DNA from: Sphingomonas sp. AP4-R1
GTDB lineage: Bacteria > Pseudomonadota > Alphaproteobacteria > Sphingomonadales > Sphingomonadaceae
NCBI RefSeq assembly: GCF_013113735.1
Contig: NZ_CP053346.1
Location: 868,001-932,000, forward strand
DNA: 64,000 nucleotides
Reading direction: 5' to 3'
The position numbers and the translations under genes were made by a program. A model generated the notes under the pieces. That model saw only the letters and a program-made list of their open reading frames with translations, did no database searches and was not told where the DNA came from. Shown one piece after another: positions 22,524-56,126 of the stretch; the stretch's first letter is position 1, and each line of letters opens with the position of its first letter.

Positions 22524-24239
22524 CTAGGGTGCCGGGTCCGACTGCTGCTCGGCCAGCATCTCGGCGATAAGGCGCCGACCTAACTCTTCTCTGGCCTCGG
22601 GCTCCATAGCCGCAGAGAGTGTGGCAAGCTCTTCGGGATCTGAGGTCAAGAAGCTTGCTCGCATGACATCACTTCGTAGCCTAAGATAGCGTGAATATTC
22701 TTCATCTGGGTGGAAGAAACGGAAGCCTAGACGCTCCAGTTTTTCGTTTATGGAGGACAGCGTCTCAAGCTCGTTCGAAGATAGGTGCTCTTTGCCCGCG
22801 TAGGCCCGCTGACGTTCCAACAAAAGATGCGTCGGCTGATCGAGCGTTGATGAGATGCCGAACATGTCGCTTGTTATGATCGCGGCATAACCTTGGCCGC
22901 GAGGATCGAGCTCAGGGTGTATCGCCACGATGCGGGCGTCGTCCGCTTTGGGCGCATCGTTCATCCGAAGGATTTGCACCTGCTCCCTCACGAGCTCGGC
23001 GATCGCCAAAGGGTTGTGGGTGGTCAGCAAGATGTGGCTATTCTGCCGATCCTGGTCAGTCTGACCAGCGAAGGTTCGCAGATAGTTTAAATAGTCGACG
23101 GTCCATCGTGGATTTAGATGTGTATCGGGTTCATCAAGCAGGAACAGGCTCTCGTTCTCGGCTGTGAATCGAAGCAGCCCCAGCACCGTAAGGAGTTGCT
23201 GCTCGCCCTCACTGAGCTCCCTGAAGGTAACAGTGCCGTCGTTCTTTTTAAGCCGGACGCGAATTCGAACTTCGTCGATCAATTGAGAGACGTGAGTGCT
23301 TTCAATATCCCGGAAGAACTCTGCTGGTCGCTGATCGCCAACGAGAGCCCGCAGAGCCGCTATGTCTTTTACAAAAAGGTATTTGAAGTTCAGCGACTTC
23401 TTATTCCATAGAGAGACTTGGACGCGCCGGCTGACCTCGATCGGAGCGAGAGCGATGGAATACAGGCGGTCGAGGAAGCCAGCGACGACGCCTTTGGCGT
23501 TCCAGAACCTAGGGTCTCCGTCATGGGACGTCCATGGGGGCTCTCTGAGAACGAATAGAACCGACTCAATCCCTTGATCTGGATCGATGCCAAGATGCTC
23601 GGAGAGAAATTGCCGGACATCGGCGGACTGCTGAATCAAGAAAGCAAGCAGCACGAAGTGGCTGTGAACCGGCATCGCATAGAAAAGCCGCTTAAGTCCA
23701 GGATCACGGCCAAGTCGAAGCTGAGAATCAAATCGCTCTAAGTAAGGGCGAAATACCTCGAAAAGACGGTCACTCTCTCCAGAGTAATATGCAAATACGT
23801 AACGGGGGAGAAGGCTAGATTGATCAAAGAACGACTTCAGTGAAACCTTCTTTCCGGTGGTCACAGGAAAGCCCGTAGATTCAGCGAAGAGGTCGGGCCC
23901 GGCATCCGCATCATTGGCGGCTCTCGTGTCGACATGAATGATTAGGGCTTCGCGCTCCCGATCTGGATCGGCGTCGATGTTCACTCGAGCGGCATTCTCG
24001 CCAGCACCGACCCGGTAGCTTAAGTTGAAGGCGAACGAGGGTTTGCGATCGCCTTGTATCAAATCCCGGAAAATGATCGCCAGTGCCTCCAGCACGTTAG
24101 ATTTGCCGGTGCCGTTCCAACCGATGACCACGGTGATCCAGTGGTCCTGGTCAAAGTCTATGGTGACGTTCTTCAGGTTTTTGAAGTGATGGGTCGGACT
24201 GTCCTTAAGACTTCCGACTGTGAGTTTGTCGAGGCGCAT
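22524..24239 (-). CDS. PtuA-like ABC-type ATPase
   Basis: A 571-residue ATPase of the SMC/ABC-like type found in Septu and other defence loci. Walker A is G40-W-N-G-T-G-K-S-N48, the signature-like motif L-S-E-G-E-Q-Q is at 342-348, Walker B is L-F-L-L-D369-E370-P, and the H-loop is T-T-H408-N-P. The spacing of about 300 residues between the two nucleotide-binding halves fits the family. The ATG at 24239 is one base beyond the hsdS stop, showing tight coupling to the type I methylase genes. With the downstream HNH protein it forms a PtuAB-like pair. It may sense phage or foreign DNA through the HsdMS complex; this is inference. Confidence 0.87.
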   Translation of the reverse strand: MRLDKLTVGSLKDSPTHHFKNLKNVTIDFDQDHWITVVIGWNGTGKSNVLEALAIIFRDLIQGDRKPSFAFNLSYRVGAGENAARVNIDADPDREREALIIHVDTRAANDADAGPDLFAESTGFPVTTGKKVSLKSFFDQSSLLPRYVFAYYSGESDRLFEVFRPYLERFDSQLRLGRDPGLKRLFYAMPVHSHFVLLAFLIQQSADVRQFLSEHLGIDPDQGIESVLFVLREPPWTSHDGDPRFWNAKGVVAGFLDRLYSIALAPIEVSRRVQVSLWNKKSLNFKYLFVKDIAALRALVGDQRPAEFFRDIESTHVSQLIDEVRIRVRLKKNDGTVTFRELSEGEQQLLTVLGLLRFTAENESLFLLDEPDTHLNPRWTVDYLNYLRTFAGQTDQDRQNSHILLTTHNPLAIAELVREQVQILRMNDAPKADDARIVAIHPELDPRGQGYAAIITSDMFGISSTLDQPTHLLLERQRAYAGKEHLSSNELETLSSINEKLERLGFRFFHPDEEYSRYLRLRSDVMRASFLTSDPEELATLSAAMEPEAREELGRRLIAEMLAEQQSDPAP

Positions 24240-24240
24240 T

Positions 24241-25860
24241 TTAGGAGCGCTTCCAACGTAGGCGATCATAGAGCTTACGCCCTTGATCGTCAGTGACCGG
24301 TTTGGACTCAATTTGCCCGTTAATGTCAAGCTCTCGCAATTCGCTATAGAGGGCTTCGATGTCTTCGGTCGCCGCGTTGGCGCCGATTCCACATAGTTCA
24401 AAGGCTTCTTGGCCCGAAACCCAGCCATCTGCGCTGGAGAGCACAGCTGAGAGAGATGTTCTTGAAACCATGGTTTTTATTTCCTTCGGGTCGCTCTTCG
24501 GGTGACGACGATTGCTCACCGTCGATTGTCGTGCGCCTGCTTCTTGGCGAGCCAAGAGAGCATCCGCAGGCTCTTCCGTAGCGTCTTGCGAGACCAGCGC
24601 TCCGCTGAAAGCCTTTGTCCAAATCGCAGCCTCGAGTTTCGGCAGAAACTCCATCGCGGTAGTGTGATCGGCCACTACGCGATCAAGCCAACCGAAAGCT
24701 GCTTCGATCCGTCGGCTGATCTCGGCCGCCTCCTCCCAGGGCGGGACGGGAACCGGCAACGCGGCGACCTTACGCTTGCTGATTGAGGCGAGGTTCGTAG
24801 TCTGCGTTCCTTCGTCGAAGAAGTACGATTGCCCCTTCTCGTTCGCGAAGTGGGAAAGGTACTTGGGCGGGAGAGTCCCGTCCTTGAGGCGTATTCGAAA
24901 GACATGGTTCTGGTGGATGCATGGGTCGATTTGTTCCTCCCAGACCCATCCGCGTCCTAACTTATCCCTGTCTCCCCCTTCGTTCATCAGCACATCTCCC
25001 TCCCTCAGGAGGAGTCTGTCCCGCTCGGTCTCGGTCACACTGATGGTCTTAATCTCATCGAGTTTGAGCCACCCCCTCTGAACGTTGGCCACCCGAAGAT
25101 ACGGGACCTCGACCAGAACCTCGTCGGCTTTTCGTCGTCGGCCGACCTGAATTCCGCCTTGGATCTCGCTGATCTCGCCAAGCGCGCGAATGCTCCAGCC
25201 CTCCGGCAGAGAGCCGGCATCCGGATGGTTTTGATTGCGTAGATCTCGCGTCAAGCGTCCGGAGAACGCAAGGTCGAGCACAATCGACCGATATCGGGCG
25301 ATCAGCATCGGGATTTGCGCCAACTCGGCCGTCGCGCGGCTAGTGCGAGCAATAAGAGCGTTCGATTTATCGACGATACGCCTTTGCTCTGCGAGCGGCG
25401 GCAGGGGCACCATATAGCTCTTGAGGAATTCGGCCGGCACACGCTGCTGACCAACGGCGCCTGACATGACTTTCTGAGCCTCGTCTCGGAAAGATCGTTG
25501 TCTCACAAATCGCCATATAAAATCCGGGAGAAGTGCGCCCTTGCTCCGAATGACGTGGAACTCCGTTGACCCAAAGCCCACGCCGTTCGCCAGATCGGTC
25601 GCGATCGCTGCCTTGCCGTTCTCCATTGATGGCGTGATCTTGGCGACGATGACGTCATTCTCCCGAAATTGGGTAAACCCCGACCTGACCTCCCTCAACG
25701 GCCGCTCGACACGGTCCGTTATCGTGCCAGAGACCTCATCGACAGCCGCCATGGGGACGAACGTCACAGCATCCGTCATTTCGAGATCGACGGACTTCCG
25801 AGGATTAATCTCCGCTACCTCGCGGAGCGGGACACTCGCCCACCCAATTCGCTCACGCAT
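24241..25860 (-). CDS. hsdS: Type I restriction-modification specificity subunit
   Basis: The 539-residue HsdS has two target-recognition domains, each followed by a conserved helix. The first TRD ends near P-L-P-P-L-A-E-Q-R-R-I-V; the second begins after L-P-E-G-W and ends near V-P-P-W-E-E. The core ends around A-F-S-G-A-L-V. A C-terminal extension of about 115 residues follows, with a winged-helix-like end (W-V-S-G-Q-E-A-F ... L-Y-S-E-L-R-E-L). HsdS longer than about 450 residues is unusual; the extension could dock the co-encoded ATPase. It directs HsdM to its DNA target. It lies 60 bases after hsdM and 1 base before the ATPase gene. Confidence 0.92.
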   Translation of the reverse strand: MRERIGWASVPLREVAEINPRKSVDLEMTDAVTFVPMAAVDEVSGTITDRVERPLREVRSGFTQFRENDVIVAKITPSMENGKAAIATDLANGVGFGSTEFHVIRSKGALLPDFIWRFVRQRSFRDEAQKVMSGAVGQQRVPAEFLKSYMVPLPPLAEQRRIVDKSNALIARTSRATAELAQIPMLIARYRSIVLDLAFSGRLTRDLRNQNHPDAGSLPEGWSIRALGEISEIQGGIQVGRRRKADEVLVEVPYLRVANVQRGWLKLDEIKTISVTETERDRLLLREGDVLMNEGGDRDKLGRGWVWEEQIDPCIHQNHVFRIRLKDGTLPPKYLSHFANEKGQSYFFDEGTQTTNLASISKRKVAALPVPVPPWEEAAEISRRIEAAFGWLDRVVADHTTAMEFLPKLEAAIWTKAFSGALVSQDATEEPADALLARQEAGARQSTVSNRRHPKSDPKEIKTMVSRTSLSAVLSSADGWVSGQEAFELCGIGANAATEDIEALYSELRELDINGQIESKPVTDDQGRKLYDRLRWKRS

Positions 25861-27532: not shown

Positions 27533-28780
27533 TCATAGCGCCAAGGCTCGCCTCAAATCGTCGTGTTCGAAGGCGCTGGCCATTCGGCTGATCTCGGCCG
27601 ACCGTGCGCCGACCGCTTTGGCGGTCTCCCGCCAAGTCGCGGTAACGGTCGCCACCTCTTTGATGACCACGCGAGCCTGCGCCAACGTCAGGGCGAAGAA
27701 CTCCGACGCTTCTTCCAGGAGATCGAGTGAACAGGTGCCCTCATTAAGATCGATGTTGGTCGTCAGCACCCGTGCCTTGATGTCGGTCGGCACCGGGTTC
27801 AGATCGTAGGCGGGCGAAAGCGACCATCCGGCCCGGCCGAGCCAAAGGAAGCCGTGATTACGCAAGTGATCATCGACATTTGAGATCAGCACGTTGAACA
27901 CGACGCGACGATAGAGGGCGTGAGCATCGCTCTTTCCCTGCGCACCATGCTCGGCAAGGGCGTCGACAATCTCCGGATAACTACCGCGTTCTCCATCCTT
28001 TGCGCCCATCATCGCCATCGCCGAAAGGAAGGGAATCCGAACTGCGCCGTCGCGATCAAAGCGCCGGGACAACATGACCTTCTTGCCGGCCACGTCGATC
28101 AGTTCGTGAAAAGGTGTGGCGATGCCAGCCTGGCCAGCGAGTAGCAGGGCGACTTCCTCCCAGGTTTCCATGCTGTAGTCGTCGGTCTCCTTGGGAAATT
28201 TGGCGATCGAGAGACGGCCATGTTGATCGACGACCGATGCCTTGGGCCGCGCTCCACCGAGGGAGGAGCCGGGTGCGAAGATTAGCTGGAGATCCTCGTC
28301 GGTCTCTTCGTCGCGCAAGATGCGTTCGGTAATCTGGAGCAGTCGGCCGAGTTCGATCAGGGCGGGCACACCGGCGCGGATCGGCGCCTGAAACTGGTCT
28401 TCGCCGACCCAGCGGAAGCGGAGCGCGCCGAGCCGCGTCTCGTCTGCGACGCCAAGCAGATAATCGCTCTCCGCCAGCGTGCGCACTGCCCGGCCTTCAC
28501 GGTCAGCGCTCCGGCGTTCTGCGCGTTGCATGAGGCGGCGGCCCCAGGTATCGGGCGCGGAGTCGCTGATGGAGCCGAAGGTTGCAAGACCAACGGGGGG
28601 TGCGAAGGCGCCGCGTGTTAGCGCAAGCGCAGGCTCCAGCGAGAACCGTTCGGCGTCTTCAAGCCAATCACGATCGTACTCAAACAGGATGGTTTCGGCA
28701 CCACGGACACGATTGCTCCTAGCCAGACCCACCGGACGCGTCCGTCCATCCAGATCGAGATGCACCTCGAAGTCAGCCAT
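27533..28780 (-). CDS. hipA: HipA-like Ser/Thr kinase toxin
   Basis: A 415-residue HipA-family kinase. The N-terminal subdomain includes S-D-S-A-P-D-T-W-G-R-R, a family hallmark. The ATP-binding P-loop-like motif is S-S-L-G-G-A-R-P-K-A. The catalytic and metal-binding segment is S-N-V-D-D-H-L-R-N-H-G-F, followed by Y-D-L-N-P. All are intact, so the toxin should be active. HipA kinases phosphorylate targets such as glutamyl-tRNA synthetase and cause growth arrest. The start codon overlaps the end of the HTH gene by 8 bases, the normal hipBA layout. Confidence 0.9.
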   Translation of the reverse strand: MADFEVHLDLDGRTRPVGLARSNRVRGAETILFEYDRDWLEDAERFSLEPALALTRGAFAPPVGLATFGSISDSAPDTWGRRLMQRAERRSADREGRAVRTLAESDYLLGVADETRLGALRFRWVGEDQFQAPIRAGVPALIELGRLLQITERILRDEETDEDLQLIFAPGSSLGGARPKASVVDQHGRLSIAKFPKETDDYSMETWEEVALLLAGQAGIATPFHELIDVAGKKVMLSRRFDRDGAVRIPFLSAMAMMGAKDGERGSYPEIVDALAEHGAQGKSDAHALYRRVVFNVLISNVDDHLRNHGFLWLGRAGWSLSPAYDLNPVPTDIKARVLTTNIDLNEGTCSLDLLEEASEFFALTLAQARVVIKEVATVTATWRETAKAVGARSAEISRMASAFEHDDLRRALAL

Positions 28781-44333: not shown

Positions 44334-46088
44334 ATGTGCGGAGCGACGCCGATGACCGGCGACGACACCATCCGCATCCGTCCAGGCCGTATACGCTCGA
44401 CGAAGACGCAGGCCGCGCGACCCTTCATTTCCCAGGCCCTCGCCGCTGCCCAGCGCGCCGGGGGAATGATTTCTCGGCGCGGAAATCTGTCCTCGGGGAG
44501 CCGCTCCCGTTTCGGCCGCGGGCAACGCGCGTCCATTCAGGCCAACCGCTTGCTCACGGCGCGCACGCGCGGCGTGGTGGTGAAAGCGCGAGTGGTCCGG
44601 CTCGGCGGACGTAATGCGCCGCTGGCCACACACCTGAGCTATCTGCGTCGCGACGGGGTTACCCGGGACGGAGAGAAGGCGCGCCTGTTCGGGCCCGGCG
44701 GCGGCGATGTCGATGCAAAGGGCTTCGCCGAGCGCAGCGCCGACGACCGTCATCACTTCCGCTTCATCGTCTCGCCAGACGACGCCGTCGAGATGTCCGA
44801 CCTCAAGGCCTTCACCCGGGACCTGGCCGGGCAGATGGAGCAGGATCTCGGCACGCGCCTCGATTGGGCGGCGGTGGACCATTGGAACACGGAGCATCCC
44901 CACGTTCACCTGATCGTGCGCGGCGTGCGGGACGACGGCGAAAATCTCGTCATATCTCGCGACTACATCAAAGAAGGCATGCGCGACCGCGCGCGCGATC
45001 TTGTCACTCAGGAACTCGGCCCTCGCACCGACCTCGAAATCCGCCGCACCCTTGAACGCCAGATCGACGCCGAGCGATGGACCAGCCTCGATCGGCAGCT
45101 TGCCCGCGACGCCTACAGGACCGGCGTCATAGACCTCGCGCCATCAGCCAACCGGCAACCTGACGCATTCCACGTTCTCAAGATCGGGCGTCTTCGCAAA
45201 CTCGAGGCGCTGGCTCTCGCCGAGGAGATCGGGCCGGGACAATGGACAGTCTCGGAACAGGCCGAGGCGACGCTTCGTCAGCTCGGCGAACGCGGCGATA
45301 TTATCAAACGCATCCACCGTGGGCTTGCCACCAGTGGGATCGACCGCAGTGCCGCGAGCTATGTGCTGGCGGCCGAGACGATCAGCGACCCGATCGTCGG
45401 CCGTCTCGTTTCGCGCGGCCTCGACGACGAATTGAAGGGAACGGCCTATGCCGTCGTCGACGGCGTCGATGGCCGCACCCACCACATCAAACTCCCCGAC
45501 TTCGACGCGGCTGGCGACAGCGCTCCCGGCTCTATCGTCGAGCTTCGCCGCTTCCATGACGCGCGCGGCGCCCAGCGCACGGCGCTGGCCGTGCGCTCCG
45601 ATCTCGACGTTAGCGGGCAGATCGCGGCGGATGGCGCGACCTGGCTCGACCGTCAGGCCATCTCGCGCAACCCGCCCGCGCTCGCCAGCGCCGGGTTTGG
45701 CGCCGAAGTCCGGGACGCGCTGGATCGACGGGCCCAGCATTTGATCCAACGCGGTCTGGCCGAGCAGCGGGGCATCGGCGTCACGTTCAACCCCGGACTG
45801 ATCGACACCCTCCGGCAACGCGAACTGGCGAGCGCGGCGGAAAAGATCGCGACGGAGACCGGGCGGCGACACGTCGGCACCGCCAGCGGCGAGTACGTCG
45901 CCGGCACCTACCGCCAGCGCCTGACGCTCGCGTCGGGCCGCTTCGCGATGATCGACGATGGCATGGGATTCCAGCTCGTGCCCTGGACGCCGTCGATCGA
46001 CCGCCAGCTCGGCCAGCACATCAGCGGCGTCGCAAGACCCGATGGCGGGGTCGACTGGACCTCCCGCAAGCGCGGCCTCGCCCTCTAA
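44334..46088 (+). CDS. Relaxase, MOBP/VirD2-like (DUF3363, RlxS type)
   Basis: A 584-residue relaxase. The DNA-nicking domain has the metal-binding pair H-H-F-R-F-I-V-S-P and H-W-N-T-E-H-P-H-V-H-L-I-V-R-G (HxH), at about residues 138-145 and 183-200. The C-terminal half is DUF3363. Upstream tyrosine candidates lie in T-H-L-S-Y-L-R-R, about residue 105. Such proteins cut at oriT and are exported with the DNA through the TraG-coupled Trb channel. The start at 44334 or 44352 cannot be decided. The gene is 18 bases ahead of traG. Confidence 0.9.
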   Translation: MCGATPMTGDDTIRIRPGRIRSTKTQAARPFISQALAAAQRAGGMISRRGNLSSGSRSRFGRGQRASIQANRLLTARTRGVVVKARVVRLGGRNAPLATHLSYLRRDGVTRDGEKARLFGPGGGDVDAKGFAERSADDRHHFRFIVSPDDAVEMSDLKAFTRDLAGQMEQDLGTRLDWAAVDHWNTEHPHVHLIVRGVRDDGENLVISRDYIKEGMRDRARDLVTQELGPRTDLEIRRTLERQIDAERWTSLDRQLARDAYRTGVIDLAPSANRQPDAFHVLKIGRLRKLEALALAEEIGPGQWTVSEQAEATLRQLGERGDIIKRIHRGLATSGIDRSAASYVLAAETISDPIVGRLVSRGLDDELKGTAYAVVDGVDGRTHHIKLPDFDAAGDSAPGSIVELRRFHDARGAQRTALAVRSDLDVSGQIAADGATWLDRQAISRNPPALASAGFGAEVRDALDRRAQHLIQRGLAEQRGIGVTFNPGLIDTLRQRELASAAEKIATETGRRHVGTASGEYVAGTYRQRLTLASGRFAMIDDGMGFQLVPWTPSIDRQLGQHISGVARPDGGVDWTSRKRGLAL

Positions 46089-46106: not shown

Positions 46107-48089
46107 ATGTCCGCGACCAAGATACTCTGGGGCCAAATCCTCGCCGTCTTCCTGATCGTCCTGCTCACGACATGGGGCGCGACCGAATGGACGGCGTACC
46201 GGCTCGGATTTCAGGACGGTCTTGGCGCGCCATGGTTCACCATCGGACGCTGGCCGATCTACTACCCGCCCGCACTCTTCTGGTGGTGGTATTTCTATGA
46301 TGCCTACGCGCCTTCGGTGTTCGCCGAGGGCGGCATGATCGCCGCGTCAGGCGGGATCGTCGCCACAATCGTCGCGATCGGAATGTCGGTATGGCGGGCG
46401 CGGGAGGCACAGAATGTGGAGACCTATGGCTCGGCGCGCTGGGCCCGCCTCGACGAGGTGAAGGCTGCCCACCTCCTCGATCAAGACGGGGTGATCCTGG
46501 GGAAACTTGATCGTGATTATCTCCGCCATGACGGCCCGGAGCATGTGCTCTGCTTCGCGCCGACCCGTTCCGGCAAGGGCGTCGGCCTCGTCGTCCCTTC
46601 ACTCCTCACCTGGCCCGGCTCCGCGATCGTCCACGATATCAAGGGAGAGAACTGGACGCTGACCGCCGGTTATCGCTCGCGCTTTGGCCGCGTGCTGCTG
46701 TTCGACCCGACCAACGCCATGTCGGCCGCCTATAACCCGCTCCTCGAAGTACGGCGCGGCGAATGGGAAGTGCGCGACGTCCAGAATATCGCGGACATCC
46801 TCGTCGACCCGGAAGGCAGCCTCGAAAAGCGCAACCACTGGGAGAAGACCAGCCACGCCCTGCTGGTCGGTGCAATTCTTCATGTCCTCTACGCCGAGAA
46901 GGACAAGACCCTCGCCGGTGTCGCCGCGTTCCTGTCAGATCCCCGGCGCCCGATCGATTCGACCCTCGGGGCGATGATGAAGACTGCCCATCTCGGCGAA
47001 GCCGGGCCGCACCCCGTCATCGCCAGCGCGGCGCGGGAGCTTCTCAACAAGTCTGAGAATGAGCGATCCGGCGTGCTCTCCACCGCCATGTCGTTCCTTG
47101 GCCTCTATCGCGATCCCGTCGTTGCCGAGGTTACGCGCCGCTGCGATTGGCGCATCACCGACCTAGTCAGCGGCAAGCACCCGACGACGCTCTACCTCGT
47201 CGTGCCGCCCTCGGACATCAACCGGACGAAGCCGCTGATCCGGCTTATCCTCAATCAAGTCGGCCGCCGCCTCACCGAGGATCTGCAGGCGAAGGCGGGC
47301 CGGCATCGCCTGCTCCTCATGCTCGACGAGTTTCCCGCGCTCGGACGCCTCGACTTTTTCGAGAGCGCCCTGGCTTTCATGGCCGGTTATGGCCTCAAGA
47401 GCTTCCTCATCGCCCAATCGCTCAACCAGATCGATAAGGCTTACGGCCCCAACAACTCGATCCTCGACAACTGCCATGTCCGGGTGAGCTTCGCGACCAA
47501 CGACGAACGCACAGCGAAACGGGTGTCCGACGCGCTCGGCACCGCCACCGAGATGAAGGCGATGAAGAACTATGCCGGCCACCGGCTGTCGCCCTGGCTC
47601 GGGCACATGATGGTCTCCCGGTCGGAAACCGCCCGTCCGCTCCTGACCCCGGGTGAAATCATGCAGCTCCCGGCAGGCGACGAGATCGTCATGGTCGCGG
47701 GAACGCCGCCGATCCGGGCACAGAAGGCACGCTATTTCGAGGACCGCCGCTTGCAGGAACGGGTGATCAGCCCACCCGTCCTGCGCAAAATCGCTGCCCC
47801 TGCGCCGGACGACTGGAGCAGGCTCGCTCTTCCCCACCCGCCGGCGGACGCTGCGCCGCCGTCCACCGTCGCGACTGATGACGAGGACACGACCGGCTCC
47901 GAACAGCGGCGCCAGCCCGAGATCGACCGTGCGCCTCCACCAGAGCCGGCCAAACCGATCAGCGAATTTGATTTCGATGCCGACGACGAGGCCGAGGACG
48001 ACATAGCGCGCACCAGTCGCATGCGCGACACGATGCGGATGGCGGCGCGGCAGGCCTCACTCGACCCCGGCGACGGCATCGAGCTTTAG
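46107..48089 (+). CDS. traG: TraG-type coupling protein
   Basis: A 660-residue VirD4/TraG-family ATPase. Three N-terminal hydrophobic helices (first near residue 10) are followed by F-A-P-T-R-S-G-K-G-V-G (Walker A, about residue 150) and L-L-L-M-L-D-E-F-P-A-L-G (Walker B, about residue 405). It delivers the relaxase-DNA complex to the Trb channel. The C-terminus is acidic and Pro-rich. The next gene lies 9 bases downstream. Confidence 0.94.
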   Translation: MSATKILWGQILAVFLIVLLTTWGATEWTAYRLGFQDGLGAPWFTIGRWPIYYPPALFWWWYFYDAYAPSVFAEGGMIAASGGIVATIVAIGMSVWRAREAQNVETYGSARWARLDEVKAAHLLDQDGVILGKLDRDYLRHDGPEHVLCFAPTRSGKGVGLVVPSLLTWPGSAIVHDIKGENWTLTAGYRSRFGRVLLFDPTNAMSAAYNPLLEVRRGEWEVRDVQNIADILVDPEGSLEKRNHWEKTSHALLVGAILHVLYAEKDKTLAGVAAFLSDPRRPIDSTLGAMMKTAHLGEAGPHPVIASAARELLNKSENERSGVLSTAMSFLGLYRDPVVAEVTRRCDWRITDLVSGKHPTTLYLVVPPSDINRTKPLIRLILNQVGRRLTEDLQAKAGRHRLLLMLDEFPALGRLDFFESALAFMAGYGLKSFLIAQSLNQIDKAYGPNNSILDNCHVRVSFATNDERTAKRVSDALGTATEMKAMKNYAGHRLSPWLGHMMVSRSETARPLLTPGEIMQLPAGDEIVMVAGTPPIRAQKARYFEDRRLQERVISPPVLRKIAAPAPDDWSRLALPHPPADAAPPSTVATDDEDTTGSEQRRQPEIDRAPPPEPAKPISEFDFDADDEAEDDIARTSRMRDTMRMAARQASLDPGDGIEL

Positions 48090-48515: not shown

Positions 48516-48665
48516 CCGCACTTGGGACATTTCGGTCGTTCGGGGCATTCGCGTCGAACGACGAGTATCGGCAGAACCTGACATTAGATGTTGGAAGACA
48601 CCCTAGGTATGTCGATCAGTGATAACGGCCGTGGAATAATCTCTTGCCACAACGTAGAATAGCTG

Positions 48666-49754
48666 ATGCGTTTTGCGACCTACAAAAGGACTGCAAGTGC
48701 AGGCCGCAACAAGTTCGACCTCGCGAGCATCCGCGCAATCCCTTTGCGTGCGGTCGCGATCGACCTCGGATTCGGGCTGACGGCTGGCGGCACCGGACGT
48801 TGCCGTCTGCCCGGCCACGATGATCGCAATCCCTCCTTTTCCATTCGATCAGCGACTAACCGCTTCACCTGCTATGCATGTGGCGAAAACGGCGACGTGA
48901 TCGATCTCGTGATGAAGATGCGCGATATCAGCTTCGTCGACGCTTGCGAATGGCTCACTGATCGGCATCTCGGCGGCGCCTCAGTGCGGCCGGAAATGGG
49001 GCGAAGGCCAGCCGGTAGAGCGGCGGCCGCCAAGCGCGCTTCGAGCGTGTCCGCCAAGGCGGAACACGCCGTCGCGCCCGACCACGAAGCCTTCGAATGG
49101 CTGCTACTTGATTCCAAGCTGAGTTCGTCCGGCTACGACTACCTGGCCAGCCGCGGCTTCAGTGCCGAGACCATAGCGCATTTCCGCGTCGGCCAGATCG
49201 GTGATCGCGGCAAGGCAATGAGGAAGGCGGTAGCCCGCTTCGGCCTGGAAAGGTTGCGGCGCTGCGGGCTCGTCTGCGATGGCAAGTTCGGAGACCGGTT
49301 CGTTTTTCCAGCCGGCTACCTCCTGTTCCCCTTCATTATAGACGGCAACGTCGCGTATCTTCAGGCGCGGCGCCCAGACAGCGGCACGCAGTGGCGCTGG
49401 CTCTGTCCGAACAGTCTCCTGCCCCCAGTGTTCAACCGGTCCGCGCTAACTGACGGCACGGCCACGATCTCCATTTGCGAAGGCGTCACTGACGTCGTCT
49501 CAGCCCACGAACTCGGCATGCCCGCCATCGGGCTCGTCGGCGCGAACGCTCGTCTCGAGGATGCAACGCTCGACTTGCTTCGCGGCCGCAACGTCGCGAT
49601 CTTTGGCGACCGCGATGCCGCCGGCTCCCGCTTCGCCCGGCATCTGGTCGATCGGCTTGCGGAGATCGGTGTCACGGCGATACCAAAGCGGCTGCCGCCG
49701 GGAGCCGATGATCTGAACGACCATCTACGAAGGGTCAGAGGCCTCTTAGTATGA
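48666..49754 (+). CDS. DnaG-like CHC2 zinc finger / Toprim protein
   Basis: A 362-residue primase-like protein. The zinc finger uses C46, H51, C69 and C72 in C-R-L-P-G-H ... C-Y-A-C-G-E-N-G-D, the DnaG CHC2 pattern. A linker of about 70 residues follows, then a Toprim-like domain with I-C-E272-G-V-T-D and F-G-D315-R-D317-A-A-G. There is no helicase domain. The RT gene overlaps its stop by 4 bases, so both are made together. It might prime or modify DNA/RNA synthesis for the RT system, but no such role is known; it could also be a cargo-encoded replication helper. Confidence 0.85.
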   Translation: MRFATYKRTASAGRNKFDLASIRAIPLRAVAIDLGFGLTAGGTGRCRLPGHDDRNPSFSIRSATNRFTCYACGENGDVIDLVMKMRDISFVDACEWLTDRHLGGASVRPEMGRRPAGRAAAAKRASSVSAKAEHAVAPDHEAFEWLLLDSKLSSSGYDYLASRGFSAETIAHFRVGQIGDRGKAMRKAVARFGLERLRRCGLVCDGKFGDRFVFPAGYLLFPFIIDGNVAYLQARRPDSGTQWRWLCPNSLLPPVFNRSALTDGTATISICEGVTDVVSAHELGMPAIGLVGANARLEDATLDLLRGRNVAIFGDRDAAGSRFARHLVDRLAEIGVTAIPKRLPPGADDLNDHLRRVRGLLV

Positions 49755-52700
49755 CATGGCACGAGTTGCTCCAGCTGCCAGAGACCGCGCTCTGGGCATG
49801 GCGAAAGGTGCGCCGTGCATACCAAGCGGCTGACAGCCTGTATGATCCAGCCGAAGTCGCGGCCTTCGAGCTGAACCTCGAGGCTGAACTCGACGCCATC
49901 TGCGCCGCCTTCGCCGAAGGCCGCTGGTCGAACCGGCCGCTGCGCCTCGTGCCGCAGCCCAAGAACCCGGACAAGCAGGGCGCGCCGAGGATGCGCCAGT
50001 TCTTCGAGGTGTCCGTCCGCGACCAGGTCGCCTGGGCGGCGGTCGCGACCGTCCTGGGTCCCGAACTGGACCGGAAGATGCCCCCTTGGAGCTACGGGAA
50101 CCGATTATACCGCGCCGCGTGGTATGATGAGGGACAGGAGACGGGAAAGGCCTCTCGGCTGAACATCGGGCCCTACAGGCATGCGGCTGGGCATCTATAC
50201 CGCCGGTTCAAGCACAGCTGGCCACTGTACCGGCGCCACATCTCGCTGACGGCGCGGCGGATGGTCAACGAACGGCTCGACCCTGAGCTGCTCGACGAGA
50301 GCGATCTACGCGCCCTCGGCCAATCGGACGGCCTGCGATACCTGGATGCGCAGTTCTGGATCCGGAAGGCTCCGGAGGGCGGCACCATGTTCGCTGGATC
50401 GTTCGACCTCATGAAGTTCTACCCCTCCGTGCGGGTCGAGGCCATTCGACGGGGGTTCGATGATCACGTCCAAGGCATCGGCGACGAGCCGGTTCTGGCT
50501 GAACTACTCCGCCAGATGCTCGTGTTCGAGGTGGATGCCTCAGGCGTCTCGGAAGACATGAGGGAAGCGATCAACCCGCCTGTGTCATCCGGCGAGTTCG
50601 ACGGCATCCCTACAGGCCTCTTCGTCGGCGGCTTCTTGGCGAACGTGGCAATGCTCTCGATCGACCTAGAAGCCGACAGGCTGCTGCTCGAGAACCGGGA
50701 AATCGCTCACTTCCGCTTCGTCGACGACCATGAAGTCCTGGCCTACGACTTCGAAGCCCTTCTGGATTGGATCCGAACCTATATCGGACTGCTGGAAGCA
50801 TCCGGGATCGGCGTAAAGGTCGAGCCGGATAAATACGTTCCTCCCGAACTTAAGTGGCTCATCCATCCAGAGAGGCTGGAAGACGAGAAAGAGATCGAGA
50901 GGCCCCCGAATGCCGAAGAGGCGATGACCCGCGCAAGGAAGGCGTCAATGGTCGACGGGCGGAAGCCCACGCAGCTCATGACCCGTACCCTGGCCCAAGT
51001 GTCGATGCTGGCCGCGACCGACTTCGACCTCTTGACTGATGCCGGACGCAGTCAGCGACTTGAGCAGCTGGAGTGGCTGCTGCTCGCCAACATCCCCGAG
51101 CAGGAGATTCGGGGTGACACCCGCATGGCATTTGCTGCCGCGCGGATCGCATTGCTTACGCCGGCCCTTTTCCGCCCGAACGACGATCTCCTCGCCGCAC
51201 GTCGCTCGATGCAGGGCCACCTCGACAAGAGAGACAAGGACAGACGCAGCGGCAGAGCCACCGACGAAGCGAACGAGATGGAGATCGCGAGCCTCGAGAA
51301 GCGCGTTGCGGAACTCGACGACCTCGAGAGGAAGGGTTGGCGCAACCTTCTGGATCGACACTTCGGCCTCCTCTTCGAGGCCTTCGCGGCACACCCGGAC
51401 AAGGTGCGACTGTTCCTGCGCGTCATCGACTTCTGCCGCACGACAGGCCACGACGGCCTAGGCAGGCTGACGAGGTGGATGGACGAGAATCGAAACGGGG
51501 AAACCCGTCTCCTGTGCTGCTACCTCGGTGCGACGGCCGTCCAGGCACTCTCCCGGCACATCTTGACCGCTTGCGCGGACGTCAACCGGCCCAACCTGCT
51601 ACACCGGGAGAGGAACGCTGCGATCTCCTTCCTTGAGAGCGTACTGAGCACGGACCTGGACCGTTTCGTCCCCATGGCCGCAGAGACTGCGTCCCTCCAG
51701 CACTTCCAGCATGACGCCAGGCGTGCCTATGTCGCCGCTCTGCTCCTCGGCGCCGCGGAGGTAGAGCAAGTCGCCCCTCAGCTCTCCGAGAAGATGCGTC
51801 AGCGCGTCATGGCGGCGATCGGCGGTGACACGTTCGAAGCCCTCGCCGCCGCCACCCGCGTTCCGATCGGCAGCTGGTATCACCTATTCCTGTCGACGAC
51901 ACGCGCGCATCGGGATCTGCCGCCGTCCTACTGGCCGAGAATCGAAGCCGCGCACGACCCGAACATTCCACAGGACTGGCTCAGTCTGCGGCGATACCCT
52001 GCAAGGCTGCCGGCCAAAGCGTGGGCGCGTCTCGTCCGCTATCCGGACCTGCTTCGCACAGACGATGCGGGCTGGCTGATCGAGGCCGCTCGCGCGAACC
52101 CGGCGGAGTTTGCCGGCCTCCCGCCATCAGATCCCGTCGTTGCCTCCGTGAAGGCGAGCCTCGCCGCCGAGAAAGGCGAGATGACGTTGCTGGACTGGGC
52201 GGCCTTCGCAAGGGAGCGTGAGCCGAACGATCCGCGCCGATCGGAGTGGACCGCTCTGGAAATCGCAAGGCAGATGCTGACGGCGTTCGGCGAGTTCGGC
52301 GGACCAGACATAGATGGCCTCGACCTGATCCACCCGGAGAACGTCTTCGTCGACCCGTCCTGGAAGGACCCGCCAGCCGACGTCCTCACGAACGAGCGGC
52401 TTACCTGGGAAGGCTGGCGCTCGGTGGCGCGGGCGAAGCCGGTGCACCTCCATCCGGAAGGGCTCGAGGACTACAGATACCGGGAGAATTTGGACGACAA
52501 TGATCGCAAGTGGGCACGCCGGCTCAGACCGGTCGGCCAGTTGCTTTGGGGAACGCTGCGGCATGACTTCAGCCTGCCTTCGGCTTGGAACATCCGGGGA
52601 CAGGAGCGCAGCCTAGTGGACTTGGTCGCCTGGGATCTCGAGCGTCTGCCTATCTCGTCGTTCACGCTGAAGATTCTCCAGGCATGCCTCCTTCCCCGCT

Positions 52701-52960
52701 CGCTGGAGAGCGCCCTGCTCCTCGACTTTCCCTCATTGTTCGGGAACCTCTTCGGTGGCGCGGCCGACGACGTCGAGTTCGACCGGCCGATCAAGAGCCT
52801 CCCCGTGCTGATCGATGTGATCGAGAGGGCACAGCTGGTCCTGACCCGAAGCCAGATGACCGTCCTAGAATACGAGCCCAGGCAGCTCATACCCGTTCGA
52901 TTGCAGCATGTCGGACGGTTGGGCGAGGGCGATGCGGCCGAGCCGGAGGATCTCCAATGA
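49751..52960 (+). CDS. Large reverse transcriptase, likely defence-associated (DRT-type)
   Basis: A 1069-residue reverse transcriptase. Motif A is F-D-L-M-K-F-Y-P-S-V (about residues 218-227), motif B is G-I-P-T-G-L-F-V-G-G-F-L (about 285), and motif C is F-R-F-V-D-D (about 320), so the catalytic aspartates are intact. A charged helical region (about 480-530) and a C-terminal part of over 500 residues follow; that part has no recognised domain and no nitrilase motif. Fingers and palm fill roughly the first 420 residues. The size and an adjacent nitrilase gene resemble the nitrilase-associated UG/DRT reverse transcriptases that protect against phage. No maturase, integrase or msr/msd is visible. 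The start is overlapped by the primase-like gene. Confidence 0.88.
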   Translation: MTWHELLQLPETALWAWRKVRRAYQAADSLYDPAEVAAFELNLEAELDAICAAFAEGRWSNRPLRLVPQPKNPDKQGAPRMRQFFEVSVRDQVAWAAVATVLGPELDRKMPPWSYGNRLYRAAWYDEGQETGKASRLNIGPYRHAAGHLYRRFKHSWPLYRRHISLTARRMVNERLDPELLDESDLRALGQSDGLRYLDAQFWIRKAPEGGTMFAGSFDLMKFYPSVRVEAIRRGFDDHVQGIGDEPVLAELLRQMLVFEVDASGVSEDMREAINPPVSSGEFDGIPTGLFVGGFLANVAMLSIDLEADRLLLENREIAHFRFVDDHEVLAYDFEALLDWIRTYIGLLEASGIGVKVEPDKYVPPELKWLIHPERLEDEKEIERPPNAEEAMTRARKASMVDGRKPTQLMTRTLAQVSMLAATDFDLLTDAGRSQRLEQLEWLLLANIPEQEIRGDTRMAFAAARIALLTPALFRPNDDLLAARRSMQGHLDKRDKDRRSGRATDEANEMEIASLEKRVAELDDLERKGWRNLLDRHFGLLFEAFAAHPDKVRLFLRVIDFCRTTGHDGLGRLTRWMDENRNGETRLLCCYLGATAVQALSRHILTACADVNRPNLLHRERNAAISFLESVLSTDLDRFVPMAAETASLQHFQHDARRAYVAALLLGAAEVEQVAPQLSEKMRQRVMAAIGGDTFEALAAATRVPIGSWYHLFLSTTRAHRDLPPSYWPRIEAAHDPNIPQDWLSLRRYPARLPAKAWARLVRYPDLLRTDDAGWLIEAARANPAEFAGLPPSDPVVASVKASLAAEKGEMTLLDWAAFAREREPNDPRRSEWTALEIARQMLTAFGEFGGPDIDGLDLIHPENVFVDPSWKDPPADVLTNERLTWEGWRSVARAKPVHLHPEGLEDYRYRENLDDNDRKWARRLRPVGQLLWGTLRHDFSLPSAWNIRGQERSLVDLVAWDLERLPISSFTLKILQACLLPRSLESALLLDFPSLFGNLFGGAADDVEFDRPIKSLPVLIDVIERAQLVLTRSQMTVLEYEPRQLIPVRLQHVGRLGEGDAAEPEDLQ

Positions 52961-53862
52961 CGACGCCACACGTGTCCAGCCTCGAGGAGAAGTTGAAGAT
53001 CGGGCTAATCCAGACATCACTCGATCCTGCCGCGGCGTGGGTGACGAACACGAAGATGACCGCATGCGAGGAAGAGCGGGCGATCATCGAGATCCGCTCC
53101 TTCTTCGCGACGTTCCATCAGGAGGAACCGCCTCCACACATTATCGTGCTTCCCGAACTGGCAGTCCCTACGGGTTTCGAAGCGAAGCTGCGCACGATGG
53201 CGACGAAGATGGAATCGGTGGTGATCGCTGGCTTCGACTACCGGGATGGGAACTCCGCGGGACAAGTCCACAACGACGCGCTCCTCATCGTTCCCCGCGT
53301 TTGGCGCGGTAAGAAGATGGGAGCGAAGACGACCACGCGCCGGATCGGGAAGACCTATCCGGCACCCGAGGAGAAGAAGAAGCTCCAGGCGATATCGTGT
53401 TCCTTCAAGGAGGACCCATCGGTCTGGCTGCTCGACGGCGGCGACATCGGCAGCTTCGGCGTGATGGTCTGCTACGACTTCCTCGATCTCGAGCGGATCG
53501 CGATGTATCGCGGCAAGGTCCACCATCTCTTCATCCTCGCGCTCAACAAGGATGCCACGTCCTTCCGTCACGTCGCGGAGGCCGTCGCCAGGATGGCCTT
53601 CTGCAACGTGATCATCTGCAATTGCGGACACTACGGCGGATCGCTCGCCGTCTCACCATACCGGCTGCCTGAGCGACGGACGATCTACCAGCATTCCGGT
53701 GCCGGCCTCGCCACCGCGCAGGTGATCGAGGTGCCCGTCTCGAAGCTCGACGAACATCAGCACCTCAACTATCCGCAGAGCGACGGTGTCAATCTCTTCA
53801 AGAGCCTGCCACCGGGCTACGTGTTCGCAGCCCCGCTGTATCGGCACATCGTGGATCTCTGA
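52957..53862 (+). CDS. Stand-alone nitrilase-fold hydrolase of the RT operon
   Basis: A 301-residue carbon-nitrogen hydrolase. The Glu-Lys-Cys triad is present: V-L-P-E67-L-A-V-P, R-I-G-K132-T-Y, and V-M-V-C172-Y-D-F. The start overlaps the RT stop by 4 bases, so it is translated with the RT. In DRT type 1 the nitrilase domain is fused to the RT; here it is separate. Substrate is unknown. Length is close to free nitrilases. It may act on a nucleotide or signal made by the RT; this is inference. Confidence 0.87.
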   Translation: MTTPHVSSLEEKLKIGLIQTSLDPAAAWVTNTKMTACEEERAIIEIRSFFATFHQEEPPPHIIVLPELAVPTGFEAKLRTMATKMESVVIAGFDYRDGNSAGQVHNDALLIVPRVWRGKKMGAKTTTRRIGKTYPAPEEKKKLQAISCSFKEDPSVWLLDGGDIGSFGVMVCYDFLDLERIAMYRGKVHHLFILALNKDATSFRHVAEAVARMAFCNVIICNCGHYGGSLAVSPYRLPERRTIYQHSGAGLATAQVIEVPVSKLDEHQHLNYPQSDGVNLFKSLPPGYVFAAPLYRHIVDL

Positions 53863-53864
53863 TC

Positions 53865-54830
53865 GTGGCAGGCCTCTTGGATCGGATTCGTCACCGCCTC
53901 GCGGGTTCGCCGGCCGACCGCGCGGGAGGAAGGTCGTCAGGCTCCGACGAGCCCAGTGGCGAGGATCTCGCACTCAGGCTGTCATCGATGCCTGGCTATC
54001 GTGTCCTGCGGGAGGTTGATGCGAATGCTGGCGTCAAGCGGCTGCGGGCCACCGTCGCCGGCGAGCGCATCGCGGCGGTCGTCGACACGGAAACTACGGG
54101 TCTCGATCCGACCAACGACCGGATCATCGAGATCGCCGTCCAACGCATGATTTTCGATGGGGGGAAGCGCATCGTCGAGATCGAGCGCGCGAGGTCGTGG
54201 TTGGAGGACCCGCAACGCCCTCTCAGCGCCGATATCTCGCGGCTGACCGGACTCGTCGATCGCGACCTGTGCGGGCAGCGGTTCGACGACGAGGCGATCC
54301 TCGAAATGGTCGGCGCTTCTGACATCGTCATCGCCCACAACGCCGCGTTCGATCGCCCTTTCCTAGACCGGCGATTCCCGAGCCTCTCGGACTTTCCTTG
54401 GGCATGCAGCCTATCTCAGCTGGATTGGCGCGACCTCGGCTATGACGGTCGGGCACTGGGCCACCTCGTGCTGCAGAGCGGATGGTTCTTCGATGGCCAC
54501 CGCGCCGGAAACGACACAAGCGCGCTGATCACACTACTGGGGACAATGGCACCAGATGGCCGCTCCGTCCTCGCCCACCTTCTGGACAGGTGCGAACGCG
54601 ACAGCCATCGTATCGACGCCATCGGCGCCCCCTTTGAGGCCAAGGACGGATTGAAGTCACGGGGTTACAAATGGGACGCCGTCCGTCGCCACTGGTGGCG
54701 CGAGGTAGAGGCTTCCGAGCTCTCTCATGAAGAGGATTGGCTCGAAACGGAGGTGTATCGTGGCCGAGGCCGCCCGCGGTCCATCCCAATCACGCCGAGG
54801 ACGCGCTTCAAGCGCGAAAGCCAGGCGTGA
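53865..54830 (+). CDS. DEDDh 3'-5' exonuclease
   Basis: A 321-residue DnaQ-like exonuclease. All DEDDh residues appear: D74-T-E76-T-T-G, D163 in H-N-A-A-F-D-R, and H212/D217 in G-H-R-A-G-N-D-T. An N-terminal extension of about 60 residues and a C-terminal domain of about 80 residues (G-Y-K-W-D-A) surround the nuclease. The latter resembles the part seen in other phage- or plasmid-type exonucleases. The GTG start lies 2 bases after the nitrilase stop, completing the four-gene operon. It could degrade DNA ends or edit RT products. Confidence 0.87.
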   Translation: MAGLLDRIRHRLAGSPADRAGGRSSGSDEPSGEDLALRLSSMPGYRVLREVDANAGVKRLRATVAGERIAAVVDTETTGLDPTNDRIIEIAVQRMIFDGGKRIVEIERARSWLEDPQRPLSADISRLTGLVDRDLCGQRFDDEAILEMVGASDIVIAHNAAFDRPFLDRRFPSLSDFPWACSLSQLDWRDLGYDGRALGHLVLQSGWFFDGHRAGNDTSALITLLGTMAPDGRSVLAHLLDRCERDSHRIDAIGAPFEAKDGLKSRGYKWDAVRRHWWREVEASELSHEEDWLETEVYRGRGRPRSIPITPRTRFKRESQA

Positions 54831-55142
54831 TAGCCGCGCTCAGACTTAAGACCAAGTGCAAGGCTTGCGGATCCGTCCAAGAGTTACCCGGATGATCTAT
54901 ATCGGGCGCTGCCGACGGTGGCAGCTTTCGTCGAGACCGGACGATCATTAGCGCGCACCTGAGCGACTGACCTTGGTCGAGAGCGGCCGCAGAGCGGGCC
55001 TGTAACCCGCCGATTGCCTGTCTTTGCACGCTACAGTGCGATGACCACTCGACACTTGTTGAAATGCCTAGGTTTCTGCCTCCTCTATCTGCCCCACGCA
55101 GGGCCGCGCGACGTGCGTGGCCGGTAATCGGACGGGGCAAGG
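54831..55142. other. Spacer between RT operon and trbB
   Basis: This 312-base gap ends the cargo. It is less coding-like than its surroundings; I see no gene, strong terminator or direct repeat that would mark an insertion edge. It must provide or pass through the trb promoter. Confidence 0.5.
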
Positions 55143-56126
55143 GTGACAAACCTGCACGCCAAACGAGAAGCGCTCCGACGCGGCGCGCGCATGCTCAGCA
55201 CCGCGCTCGGACCGTCAATCGCGCAGTTTCTGGAAGACCCGGCCGTGGTCGAAGTCATGCTCAACCCGGACGGCCGACTCTGGGTCGATCGCCTCGCGGA
55301 AGGACTGGTCGAGACTGAGGCGACGCTCTCGCCCGAAGACGGGGAGAGGATCATCAGGCTAGTCGCGCACCATGTCGGCGCCGAGGTTCACGCCGGCGCG
55401 CCGCGCGTTTCCGCCGAACTGCCGGAAACCGGCGAGCGCTTTGAGGGCCTTCTGCCGCCCGTCGTCACCGCGCCAACCTTCGCCATCCGCAAGCCCGCCG
55501 TCGCGCTGTTCACGCTCGACGACTATGTCTGGACCGGCGTGATGCCAGCGGCGCACGCGGACGCGCTGCGCGTCGCCGTCGCCGAACGCCGCAATATCCT
55601 CGTTGCTGGCGGCACCTCCACCGGCAAGACGACGCTCACCAACGCCCTGCTGGCCGAAGTCGCCAAGACCAGCGACCGTGTCGTGCTGATCGAGGACACG
55701 CGCGAGTTGCAATGCGCCGCCCCGAACCTGGTCGCCATGCGAACCAAGGACGGCGTCGCGACGCTTTCCGACCTCGTCCGCTCGTCCCTTCGGCTCCGTC
55801 CCGACCGGATTCCGATCGGCGAGGTTCGCGGCGCGGAGGCGCTAGACCTCCTCAAGGCCTGGGGCACCGGACATCCCGGCGGGATCGGCACGATCCATGC
55901 CGGAAGCGCGATGGGCGCGCTCCGCCGCATGGAGCAGCTCATACAAGAAGCGGTCATCACCGTCCCGCGCGCGCTCATCGCGGAGACGATCGACATCGTC
56001 GCCGTCCTGTCCGGCCGGGGCGCAGCCCGGCGGCTTGCCGAACTGGCGCGCGTCGAAGGGCTGACAGGCGATGGCGACTACCGAGTGTCCCTCATCTTCT
56101 CGCCCGTCACAGGAGATCCGTCATGA
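55143..56126 (+). CDS. trbB: TrbB conjugation ATPase
   Basis: A 327-residue VirB11-family ATPase that powers pilus assembly and transfer. Walker A is G-G-T-S-T-G-K-T-T (about residue 155), followed by the Asp box [15 protein letters not shown] and [11 protein letters not shown]. The GTG at 55143 gives the usual start. It is the first trb gene and overlaps trbC by 4 bases. Confidence 0.94.

What the first reader, a model, noticed from the sequence alone, without database searches (positions are those of the whole stretch)
48666..54830. Four-gene reverse-transcriptase operon: primase-like, RT, free nitrilase, DEDDh exonuclease
Four genes are translationally coupled (4-base overlaps at 49751 and 52957, 2-base gap at 53863-53864) and inserted as cargo in the transfer region. 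All catalytic motifs are intact: RT motifs A-C with F-V-D-D, nitrilase E67-K132-C172, exonuclease D74-E76-D163-H212-D217, and CHC2/Toprim residues. Defence-associated RTs with a nitrilase domain (DRT type 1, UG1) are known, where the nitrilase is fused. Here it is a separate protein, the RT has a long extra C-terminus without a known domain, and two further nucleic-acid enzymes are co-encoded. This may be an unrecognised variant or a new anti-phage system. The defence role is inference.
Basis: partly seen in the sequence, partly recalled or inferred. Interest (0 to 1): 0.95.

Follow-up and report, generated by a model that had tools for sequence, protein, structure and literature searches.

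The report
Four-enzyme reverse-transcriptase phage-defence cassette
A mobile DNA element carries four enzyme genes built around a reverse transcriptase of a catalogued but, as far as I could find, untested defence family; it probably works like a recently solved anti-phage machine that has been split into parts and given its own primase and DNA-trimming enzyme.

Summary
In detail: four intact, coupled genes at 48666-54830 (DnaG-like primase, reverse transcriptase, free nitrilase, DEDDh 3'-5' exonuclease). It is not wholly unrecognised: PADLOC-DB (2023) names the RT UG6 and the first and third genes RT-associated, and that three-gene core stands in 33 of 35 loci. The unlisted part is the exonuclease type: PADLOC models an SbcB-type partner, not this PRK09182 type. 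In 19 of 35 loci the gene beside the core is a 3'-5' exonuclease, from three families, before or after it; all lie in one branch of the RT tree. The nitrilase's only PDB match is DRT1 (9yfd), with DRT1's essential lid motif kept; the RT is homologous to DRT1 to residue 493, without its priming serine. I read it as a split DRT1: RT-made DNA controls a free nitrilase, a primase may start the DNA, an exonuclease limits it. The RT C-terminus resembles a protein-kinase C-lobe (moderate support). The cassette is a 6.5 kb unit at a traG-trbB site that holds other defence genes in some relatives. Defence itself is untested.

The parts
48523..54997 (+). mobile cassette: stretch shared at 91% DNA identity with Sphingobium sp. 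Leaf26 (L002), abrupt ends
   Evidence: one alignment of 6,476 columns; no repeats found within either end region (each end searched on its own)
48666..49754 (+). DnaG-like mini-primase, 362 aa: CHC2 zinc finger, partial DnaG core, Toprim; ends after Toprim, so no helicase-binding C-terminal domain (that last point by comparison with recalled DnaG anatomy)
   Evidence: RTasDnaG-like 279.7 bits; PF01807, PF13155, PF13362 over cut-off; invariant residues
49751..52960 (+). UG6 reverse transcriptase, 1069 aa (FVDD 323-326)
50981..51004 (+). RT residues 411-418 (TRTLAQVS): T413 and S418 invariant in 89 of 89 rows; lies just after the place of DRT1's priming serine; possible priming region (inference)
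52229..52705 (+). RT residues 827-985: region resembling a protein-kinase C-lobe without HRD aspartate, DFG or N-lobe
   Evidence: for; no support:
52957..53862 (+). free nitrilase, 301 aa, E67-K132-C172; C-terminal lid motif K282-x-x-P285-x-G287 as in DRT1
   Evidence: RTasNitrilase 343.6 bits; only PDB match 9yfd; hhalign to DRT1 Prob 99.6
53865..54830 (+). DEDDh 3'-5' exonuclease of the PRK09182 type, 321 aa, GTG start
   Evidence: NF006615 280.6 bits, cut-off 207; no RT-associated PADLOC model at E 0.1
44334..46088 (+). RlxS-type relaxase of the host element (context)
   Evidence: 582.3 bits, below the RlxS cut-off of 850
46107..48089 (+). TraG coupling protein (left border of the insertion site)
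   Evidence: 1225.9 bits
48099..48515 (+). ribbon-helix-helix-like protein of the element, outside the cassette
   Evidence: PF01402 13.8 bits, below cut-off
55143..56126 (+). TrbB ATPase (right border of the insertion site)
   Evidence: 432.6 bits

Best explanation
It is an anti-phage (abortive-infection) operon of the UG6 branch of defence-associated RTs that works like DRT1 taken apart. The RT makes non-genomic single-stranded DNA, probably without an RNA template. That DNA, held by the RT, controls the assembly or lid of the separate nitrilase, which is the cell-damaging effector. The DnaG-like enzyme takes part in starting the DNA (or makes the primer), doing what a single priming serine does in DRT1. 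The 3'-5' exonuclease trims or removes the DNA and so keeps the switch off until infection disturbs the balance. SHOWN here: gene content, intact active sites, homology of RT (through residue 493) and of nitrilase (including the lid) to DRT1, absence of the DRT1 priming serine, natural primase-RT fusions, exonucleases of three families beside the core in one branch, purifying selection, a cassette at a site that can hold other defence genes. INFERRED: DNA synthesis, its template-free nature, nitrilase as effector, primase as starter, exonuclease as brake, phage as trigger.
For: RT_UG6, RTasDnaG-like and RTasNitrilase profiles. Nitrilase: 9yfd is the only PDB match at E up to 1 and, with the profile, up to 0.01. 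K282-x-x-P285-x-G287 aligns with 9yfd K1219-x-x-P1222-A-G (residue numbers counted by me from the alignment end); K1219 and A1223 are reported essential for DRT1 (PMC13275509, section 8); K282 and P285 invariant in 22 of 22, G287 in at least 90%. In DRT1 both active sites are needed, and DRT1 and DRT5 make protein-primed untemplated DNA (section 5). Core order in 33 of 35 loci. Primase and RT are one protein in P0099 and L031. A 3'-5' exonuclease of one of three families is adjacent in 19 of 35 loci. Precedent for an exonuclease brake: an RT-SLATT system makes host exonuclease I (SbcB) essential in E. coli H120 (PMC9122126, passages). Two of six other large inserts at the traG-trbB site hold clear PADLOC matches.
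Against: No phenotype data. 16 of 35 loci lack an adjacent DEDD exonuclease as far as I looked; in the corrected RT tree 19 of 27 rows of one well-supported branch have one and 0 of 9 rows outside it, so the core can do without. DRT1's priming serine is not conserved (position 401 is I/L/V in 86 of 89), so protein priming cannot simply be carried over. RT and nitrilase are separate; a complex is not shown. The C-terminal helical part of the RT does not align significantly with DRT1 (Prob 0.8). The RT is rare: 4 of 396 genomes in the order and 1 of 385 in the class, own genome included in both; no match in phage or PLSDB records and no relative confirmed in viral contigs. Four of the six other inserts at the site gave no or only a weak PADLOC match.
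Confidence: 0.6

Rival explanations
1. The nucleic-acid enzymes, not the nitrilase, do the damage: primase and RT make DNA on phage or plasmid nucleic acid (for example copying or blocking incoming DNA), the exonuclease degrades invaders, and the nitrilase only signals or tunes.
For: Three of four genes act on nucleic acids; exonuclease active site intact; the cassette sits in a conjugative element, where plasmid competition is possible.
Against: Nitrilase is the most constrained of the four genes (dN/dS 0.024) and keeps the DRT1 lid and active site; in DRT1 the nitrilase active site is needed for defence (PMC13275509). The exonuclease is replaceable or absent, while a nitrilase was found in 34 of 35 loci, the 35th ending before it.
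Confidence: 0.15
2. It is a retron-like or RNA-templated (class 2) DRT with an unseen noncoding RNA next to the operon.
For: About 143 bases upstream of the first gene and 167 downstream of the last belong to the cassette and are conserved with L002 (matches of 86.7% and 87.5%, which include some coding bases), enough room for a small RNA.
Against: No Rfam family reached its threshold in the window; the flanking stretches match only the closest relative, none of the five others compared at E 0.01; the four genes leave at most 2 bases between them; RT profile is UG6 and homologous to untemplated DRT1.
Confidence: 0.1
3. It serves the conjugative element (priming or protecting transferred single strands) rather than defence.
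For: In the window it sits inside the transfer region; a primase and a 3'-5' exonuclease fit single-strand handling.
Against: In the stretches held for the 35 relatives (up to 10 kb each side) the window's TraG and relaxase were found in none and a TrbB-like piece only in L002; 22 of 38 TraG-TrbB pairs in the family have 0.45-0.7 kb between them; the same site holds IetA/IetS in another element.
Confidence: 0.08
4. A housekeeping or repair pathway unrelated to phage.
For: DnaG, DnaQ-type exonuclease and polymerase are repair-like activities.
Against: Found in 4 of 396 genomes of the order, patchy across phyla, moves as a cassette.
Confidence: 0.07

Closest known systems
UG6 DRT module of PADLOC-DB 2.0.0 (RT_UG6, RTasDnaG-like, RTasNitrilase; RTasSbcB beside some UG6 loci)
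   Same: RT, DnaG-like protein and free nitrilase match these models strongly; same gene order as in 33 of 35 relatives
   Different: The window's exonuclease is PRK09182-type; the SbcB-type neighbours of L015, L020, L021 and L034 match RTasSbcB at 448-702 bits, P0004 does not match it at E 0.1. That PADLOC ties RTasSbcB to UG6 in particular was not seen; the link is from the loci
DRT1 (UG1; structure 9yfd; PMC13275509)
   Same: Homologous RT (UG6 residues 2-493), homologous nitrilase with the essential C-terminal lid motif
   Different: DRT1 is one polypeptide with a priming serine S402; the paper describes no primase or exonuclease partner in the sections read. UG6 is split and lacks the serine
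UG5 RT-nitrilase
   Same: Nitrilase matches the UG5 profile (130 bits); an RT of unknown group 5 with a fused nitrilase and a transmembrane partner is among the systems tested for defence in E. coli (PMC9122126, passages)
   Different: Nitrilase fused to RT; RT only distantly similar (16.8 bits)
RT-SLATT system of E. coli H120 (PMC9122126)
   Same: RT whose presence makes a 3'-5' exonuclease (SbcB) essential, which suggests an exonuclease brake
   Different: Other RT system and effector; exonuclease is the host's
PRK09182 exonuclease family (NF006615)
   Same: 280.6 bits, over the cut-off of 207
   Different: The family is found in 7 of 60 genomes of the order, own included; own genome has a second copy, 38% identical, elsewhere

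Membership tests
UG6 DRT (PADLOC) | RT best matched by RT_UG6 | tested here: met
   903.7 bits; next model 48.2
UG6 DRT (PADLOC) | adjacent DnaG-like gene | tested here: met
   279.7 bits to RTasDnaG-like
UG6 DRT (PADLOC) | adjacent nitrilase gene | tested here: met
   343.6 bits to RTasNitrilase
UG6 DRT (PADLOC) | SbcB-type exonuclease (RTasSbcB), seen beside 4 of 35 UG6 loci; optional, not defining | tested here: not met
   P0004 matches only generic DEDDh and PDC-S48 models; a different 3'-5' exonuclease stands there
anti-phage defence system | phage protection in a host | not testable with these tools
   no experiment possible
DRT1 / class 3 DRT | homologous RT domain | tested here: met
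   hhalign Prob 99.5, 423 columns; 9yfd E 1.7e-9
DRT1 / class 3 DRT | RT and nitrilase (or phosphohydrolase) in one multidomain protein (definition in PMC13275509, passage) | tested here: not met
   two separate proteins
DRT1 / class 3 DRT | nitrilase active site and essential C-terminal lid | tested here: met
DRT1 / class 3 DRT | priming serine (S402 of DRT1; by the paper not conserved in other class 3 DRTs) | tested here: not met
   aligned UG6 position 401 is I, L or V in 86 of 89 rows; that L053 S430 corresponds to S402 is my reading from the distance to the catalytic pair
[quoted passage not shown]
   biochemistry needed
group II intron maturase | score over the curated cut-off | tested here: not met
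   31.5 bits against 300
retron | retron RT as best model, msr-msd RNA | tested here: inconclusive
   RT best model is UG6; no Rfam match in the window at gathering score, but Rfam need not hold all such RNAs
protein kinase | C-lobe arrangement alphaE to alphaH | tested here: inconclusive
protein kinase | N-lobe, HRD aspartate, DFG | tested here: not met
   residues 475-779 predicted helical; position aligned with the catalytic Asp is variable, D in 7 of 89

The most novel reading that the evidence does not exclude
A four-enzyme switch not yet described: a DnaG primase starts, and a dedicated 3'-5' exonuclease limits, an untemplated single strand made by the RT, and the length or amount of that strand gates a free nitrilase toxin. 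The RT carries a dead kinase-like C-lobe as the docking part. In one branch of UG6 the exonuclease slot has been filled by enzymes of three families, so there the exonuclease is a working part, not a passenger.
Probability: 0.3. Interest if true: 0.8.

Novelty: new variant of a known kind. Interest (0 to 1): 0.62.

Why it matters
DRT1 showed in 2026 that self-made DNA can both arm and restrain a nitrilase, but all parts sit in one chain. UG6 separates RT, effector and, on this reading, initiation and removal of the DNA into four genes that can be deleted, swapped and purified one by one. That makes open questions about nitrilase DRTs directly testable: what starts the DNA when the priming serine is absent, what turns the switch off, and whether the DNA's 3' end is the sensed feature. 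Exonucleases of three families in the same slot predict a product with an accessible 3' end. If the kinase-like lobe is real, it would be an unexpected domain in a reverse transcriptase.

Tried and rejected
Led nowhere or weak: Rfam scan (0 matches); viral contigs (36 stretches, none confirmed); phage and plasmid records (none). Foldseek of the RT C-terminus alone: best E 0.22, nothing at E 0.001. The 50 rows shown of the Foldseek and VIA lists of the whole model do not include 9yfd; that PDB copy ends April 2026, so this is no evidence. APH kinases (PF01636, 30 sequences) as the source of the LHPxN motif: hhalign Prob 1.1, while APH against kinases gave 96.9; rejected. HMMER with the C-lobe profile against PDB: 0 matches at E 10; Pfam on 20 C-lobe sequences: no kinase. 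Repeats within either cassette end: none. A conserved neighbouring RNA: no support beyond the nearest relative. A UvrD helicase gene upstream of L004's operon and a gene upstream of L035's match RTasHel and RTasTM; neither is among the window's four genes. Mestre et al. 2022, which defines the UG/Abi classes (cited in PMC13275509), is not held, so what it says about UG6, and whether UG6 was ever tested, was not seen. In the library UG6 was found only in PMC8934634 (searches; passages: RT class, one nitrilase neighbour, no function); searches for related wording added no UG6 paper; one search (45 papers, 20 listed) showed only PMC13275509 as relevant.

Labels corrected: in the tree rows L040 and L041 were labelled without exonuclease because their loci were short. 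Longer stretches show the exonuclease upstream in L041's genome (contig length and RT as L016's) and no PRK09182-type exonuclease in L040's (L132; not checked for other types). One search repeats the tree without L041, L043, L007 and the DRT1 rows and with the SbcB and PolB types labelled; its counts replace those, and the number of changes forced for the upstream group falls from 2 to 1. L007 gives the same coordinates and scores as L004 and was left out of the trees. In the exonuclease tree the row L023_second was extremely long and its place means nothing.
Full report
WHAT IS THERE. Four genes on the plus strand, coupled by two 4-nt overlaps and one 2-nt gap, lie between TraG plus a small RHH-like gene and TrbB of a conjugative element. 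The genome has 5.27 Mb in 2 contigs.

WHAT THE GENES ARE. PADLOC-DB calls the RT UG6 (903.7 bits; next best 48.2), the first gene RTasDnaG-like (279.7) and the third RTasNitrilase (343.6). The fourth is a PRK09182-type 3'-5' exonuclease (280.6 bits, cut-off 207); PADLOC gives it only DEDDh and PDC-S48 matches. The group II intron label does not fit, and no retron model outscores UG6.

THE UNIT TRAVELS. A 27-row RT alignment found 35 loci in named genomes. DnaG, RT and nitrilase follow each other on one strand in 33 of 35. L034 has no DnaG match; L033's contig ends before the nitrilase. The RT frame is interrupted in L002, L026, L029 and L032. The 33 include Alphaproteobacteria (the largest part), Verrucomicrobiota, Bacteroidota, Bacillota and Campylobacterota (organisms as listed). 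DnaG and RT are one protein in L031 and in the metagenomic P0099. PADLOC's UG29 RT profile also holds a DnaG-like stretch that P0001 matches (73.1 bits). The RT is rare: 4 of 396 genomes of the order, 1 of 385 of the class, own genome counted in both.

THE FOURTH GENE. PRK09182-type exonucleases stand directly after the nitrilase in 9 of 35 loci (L002-L008, L011, L025) and directly before DnaG in 5 (L012, L014, L016, L023, L026). SbcB/exonuclease I-type genes stand beside the core on the same strand in 4 more (L015, L020 before; L021, L034 after, L034 being the locus without DnaG; gaps 40-135 nt), and a PF10108 PolB-type exonuclease follows in L022 (49 nt). That is 19 of 35 (18 of 34 without L007, which duplicates L004). 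L017 has an SbcB-type gene 756 nt away on the other strand and L024 a DUF2779/Cas4-like predicted nuclease 3 nt after the nitrilase; neither is counted. In the other loci only some neighbours were scanned with Pfam (20 proteins, some of them from loci already counted); the rest were checked only with two exonuclease profiles, so 19 is a lower bound. The SbcB type is catalogued as RT-associated (RTasSbcB). In the RT tree with corrected labels (36 rows: window, 34 loci, L040) the exonuclease carriers are 19 of 27 rows of one well-supported branch (100/99) and 0 of 9 outside it. Within the branch, starred forks force at least 2 changes for the PRK09182-downstream group, 3 for SbcB and 1 for PRK09182-upstream. 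The exonuclease tree places most upstream rows near the host paralogue and away from the downstream rows. So the core is older than the exonuclease, and in one branch enzymes of three families came to occupy the same place, which is hard to explain unless a 3'-5' exonuclease is useful there.

HOW IT PROBABLY WORKS. DRT1 (UG1) makes untemplated DNA attached to its own serine 402; DNA synthesis activates, and filament formation restrains, its fused nitrilase; both active sites are needed; defence is by abortive infection (PMC13275509; abstract and sections 5, 7, 8, 9, 10 read). UG6 is homologous to DRT1 over RT residues 2-493 (Prob 99.5, E 3e-22), and its free nitrilase over the whole domain (Prob 99.6). 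9yfd is the only PDB match to the nitrilase at the limits used (E up to 1 for the single sequence, up to 0.01 for the profile). The lid motif K-x-x-P-x-G, whose residues K1219 and A1223 are reported essential in DRT1, is kept as K282-x-x-P285-P-G287; K282 and P285 are invariant in 22 of 22. The DRT1 priming serine is not kept: the aligned position is I/L/V in 86 of 89 rows, while T413 and S418, 12 and 17 residues on, are invariant in 89 of 89 and T411 stands in 87. Either one of these takes the role or the DnaG-like enzyme, with its zinc and metal residues kept, starts the strand. An exonuclease brake has a precedent: an RT-SLATT system makes SbcB essential in E. coli H120 (PMC9122126, passages). 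Everything about biochemical activity in UG6 is inference.

CASSETTE AND SITE. Window 48523-54997 matches L002 at 91.06% DNA identity with abrupt ends. From the place lists (99 genomes of the family; 43 TraG and 47 TrbB places) a script pairs 38 neighbours on one strand: 22 have 469-685 bases between them, 9 other gaps are 145-2,585 bases, 7 exceed 5 kb, own cassette included. Of the other six large inserts I fetched four whole and two in part and scanned 20 of their ORFs with PADLOC: one insert holds IetA and IetS, one holds OLD/Gabija-like and type II methyltransferase matches and a weak LmuB match, one a weak mad8 match (28.8 bits), three gave nothing. So the site takes cargo repeatedly, some of it defence genes.

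VERDICT. A real, conserved, probably anti-phage operon; core already catalogued as UG6; the exonuclease type and its slot, the detailed relationship to DRT1 and the kinase-like lobe are the new parts. Whether it defends against phage is unproven.

Noticed in passing
window 22527-24428 (-), next ORF 21708-22520 (-): SMC-like AAA_21 ATPase (PF13304, 83 bits), of a kind often found in OLD/AbiEii-type defence pairs (recalled), about 25 kb from the cassette.
   Followed up: no
window 27536-28780 (-): HipA-type gene (PF07804, 149 bits), a likely toxin-antitoxin component.
   Followed up: no
L124 (G1060:C1:1142200-1153500): A different insert at the same traG-trbB site: OLD/Gabija-like ATPase, type II DNA methyltransferase and a large ATPase with a weak LmuB match.
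   Followed up: partly
L121 2545-6033 (G1071:C19): IetA and IetS homologues (231.8 and 99 bits) as cargo at the same site.
   Followed up: partly
L004 5482-8856: UvrD-type helicase whose end overlaps the DnaG-like gene by 4 nt, matching PADLOC RTasHel: perhaps a five-gene version of the operon.
   Followed up: partly
L024 7690-9165: 491-aa protein 3 nt after the nitrilase with DUF2779 and a weak Cas4-like match; perhaps another nuclease in the exonuclease slot.
   Followed up: partly
L053 (DRT1 homologue), protein residues 859-939: Faint hhalign match of DRT1's helical domain to the kinase alphaF-alphaH region (Prob 9.8, E 0.0032); might mean the lobe is shared by RT-nitrilase systems.
   Followed up: no
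G000:C1:5020751-5024135: The genome holds a second TraG-TrbB pair with a gap of 517 bases, that is, without cargo.
   Followed up: no
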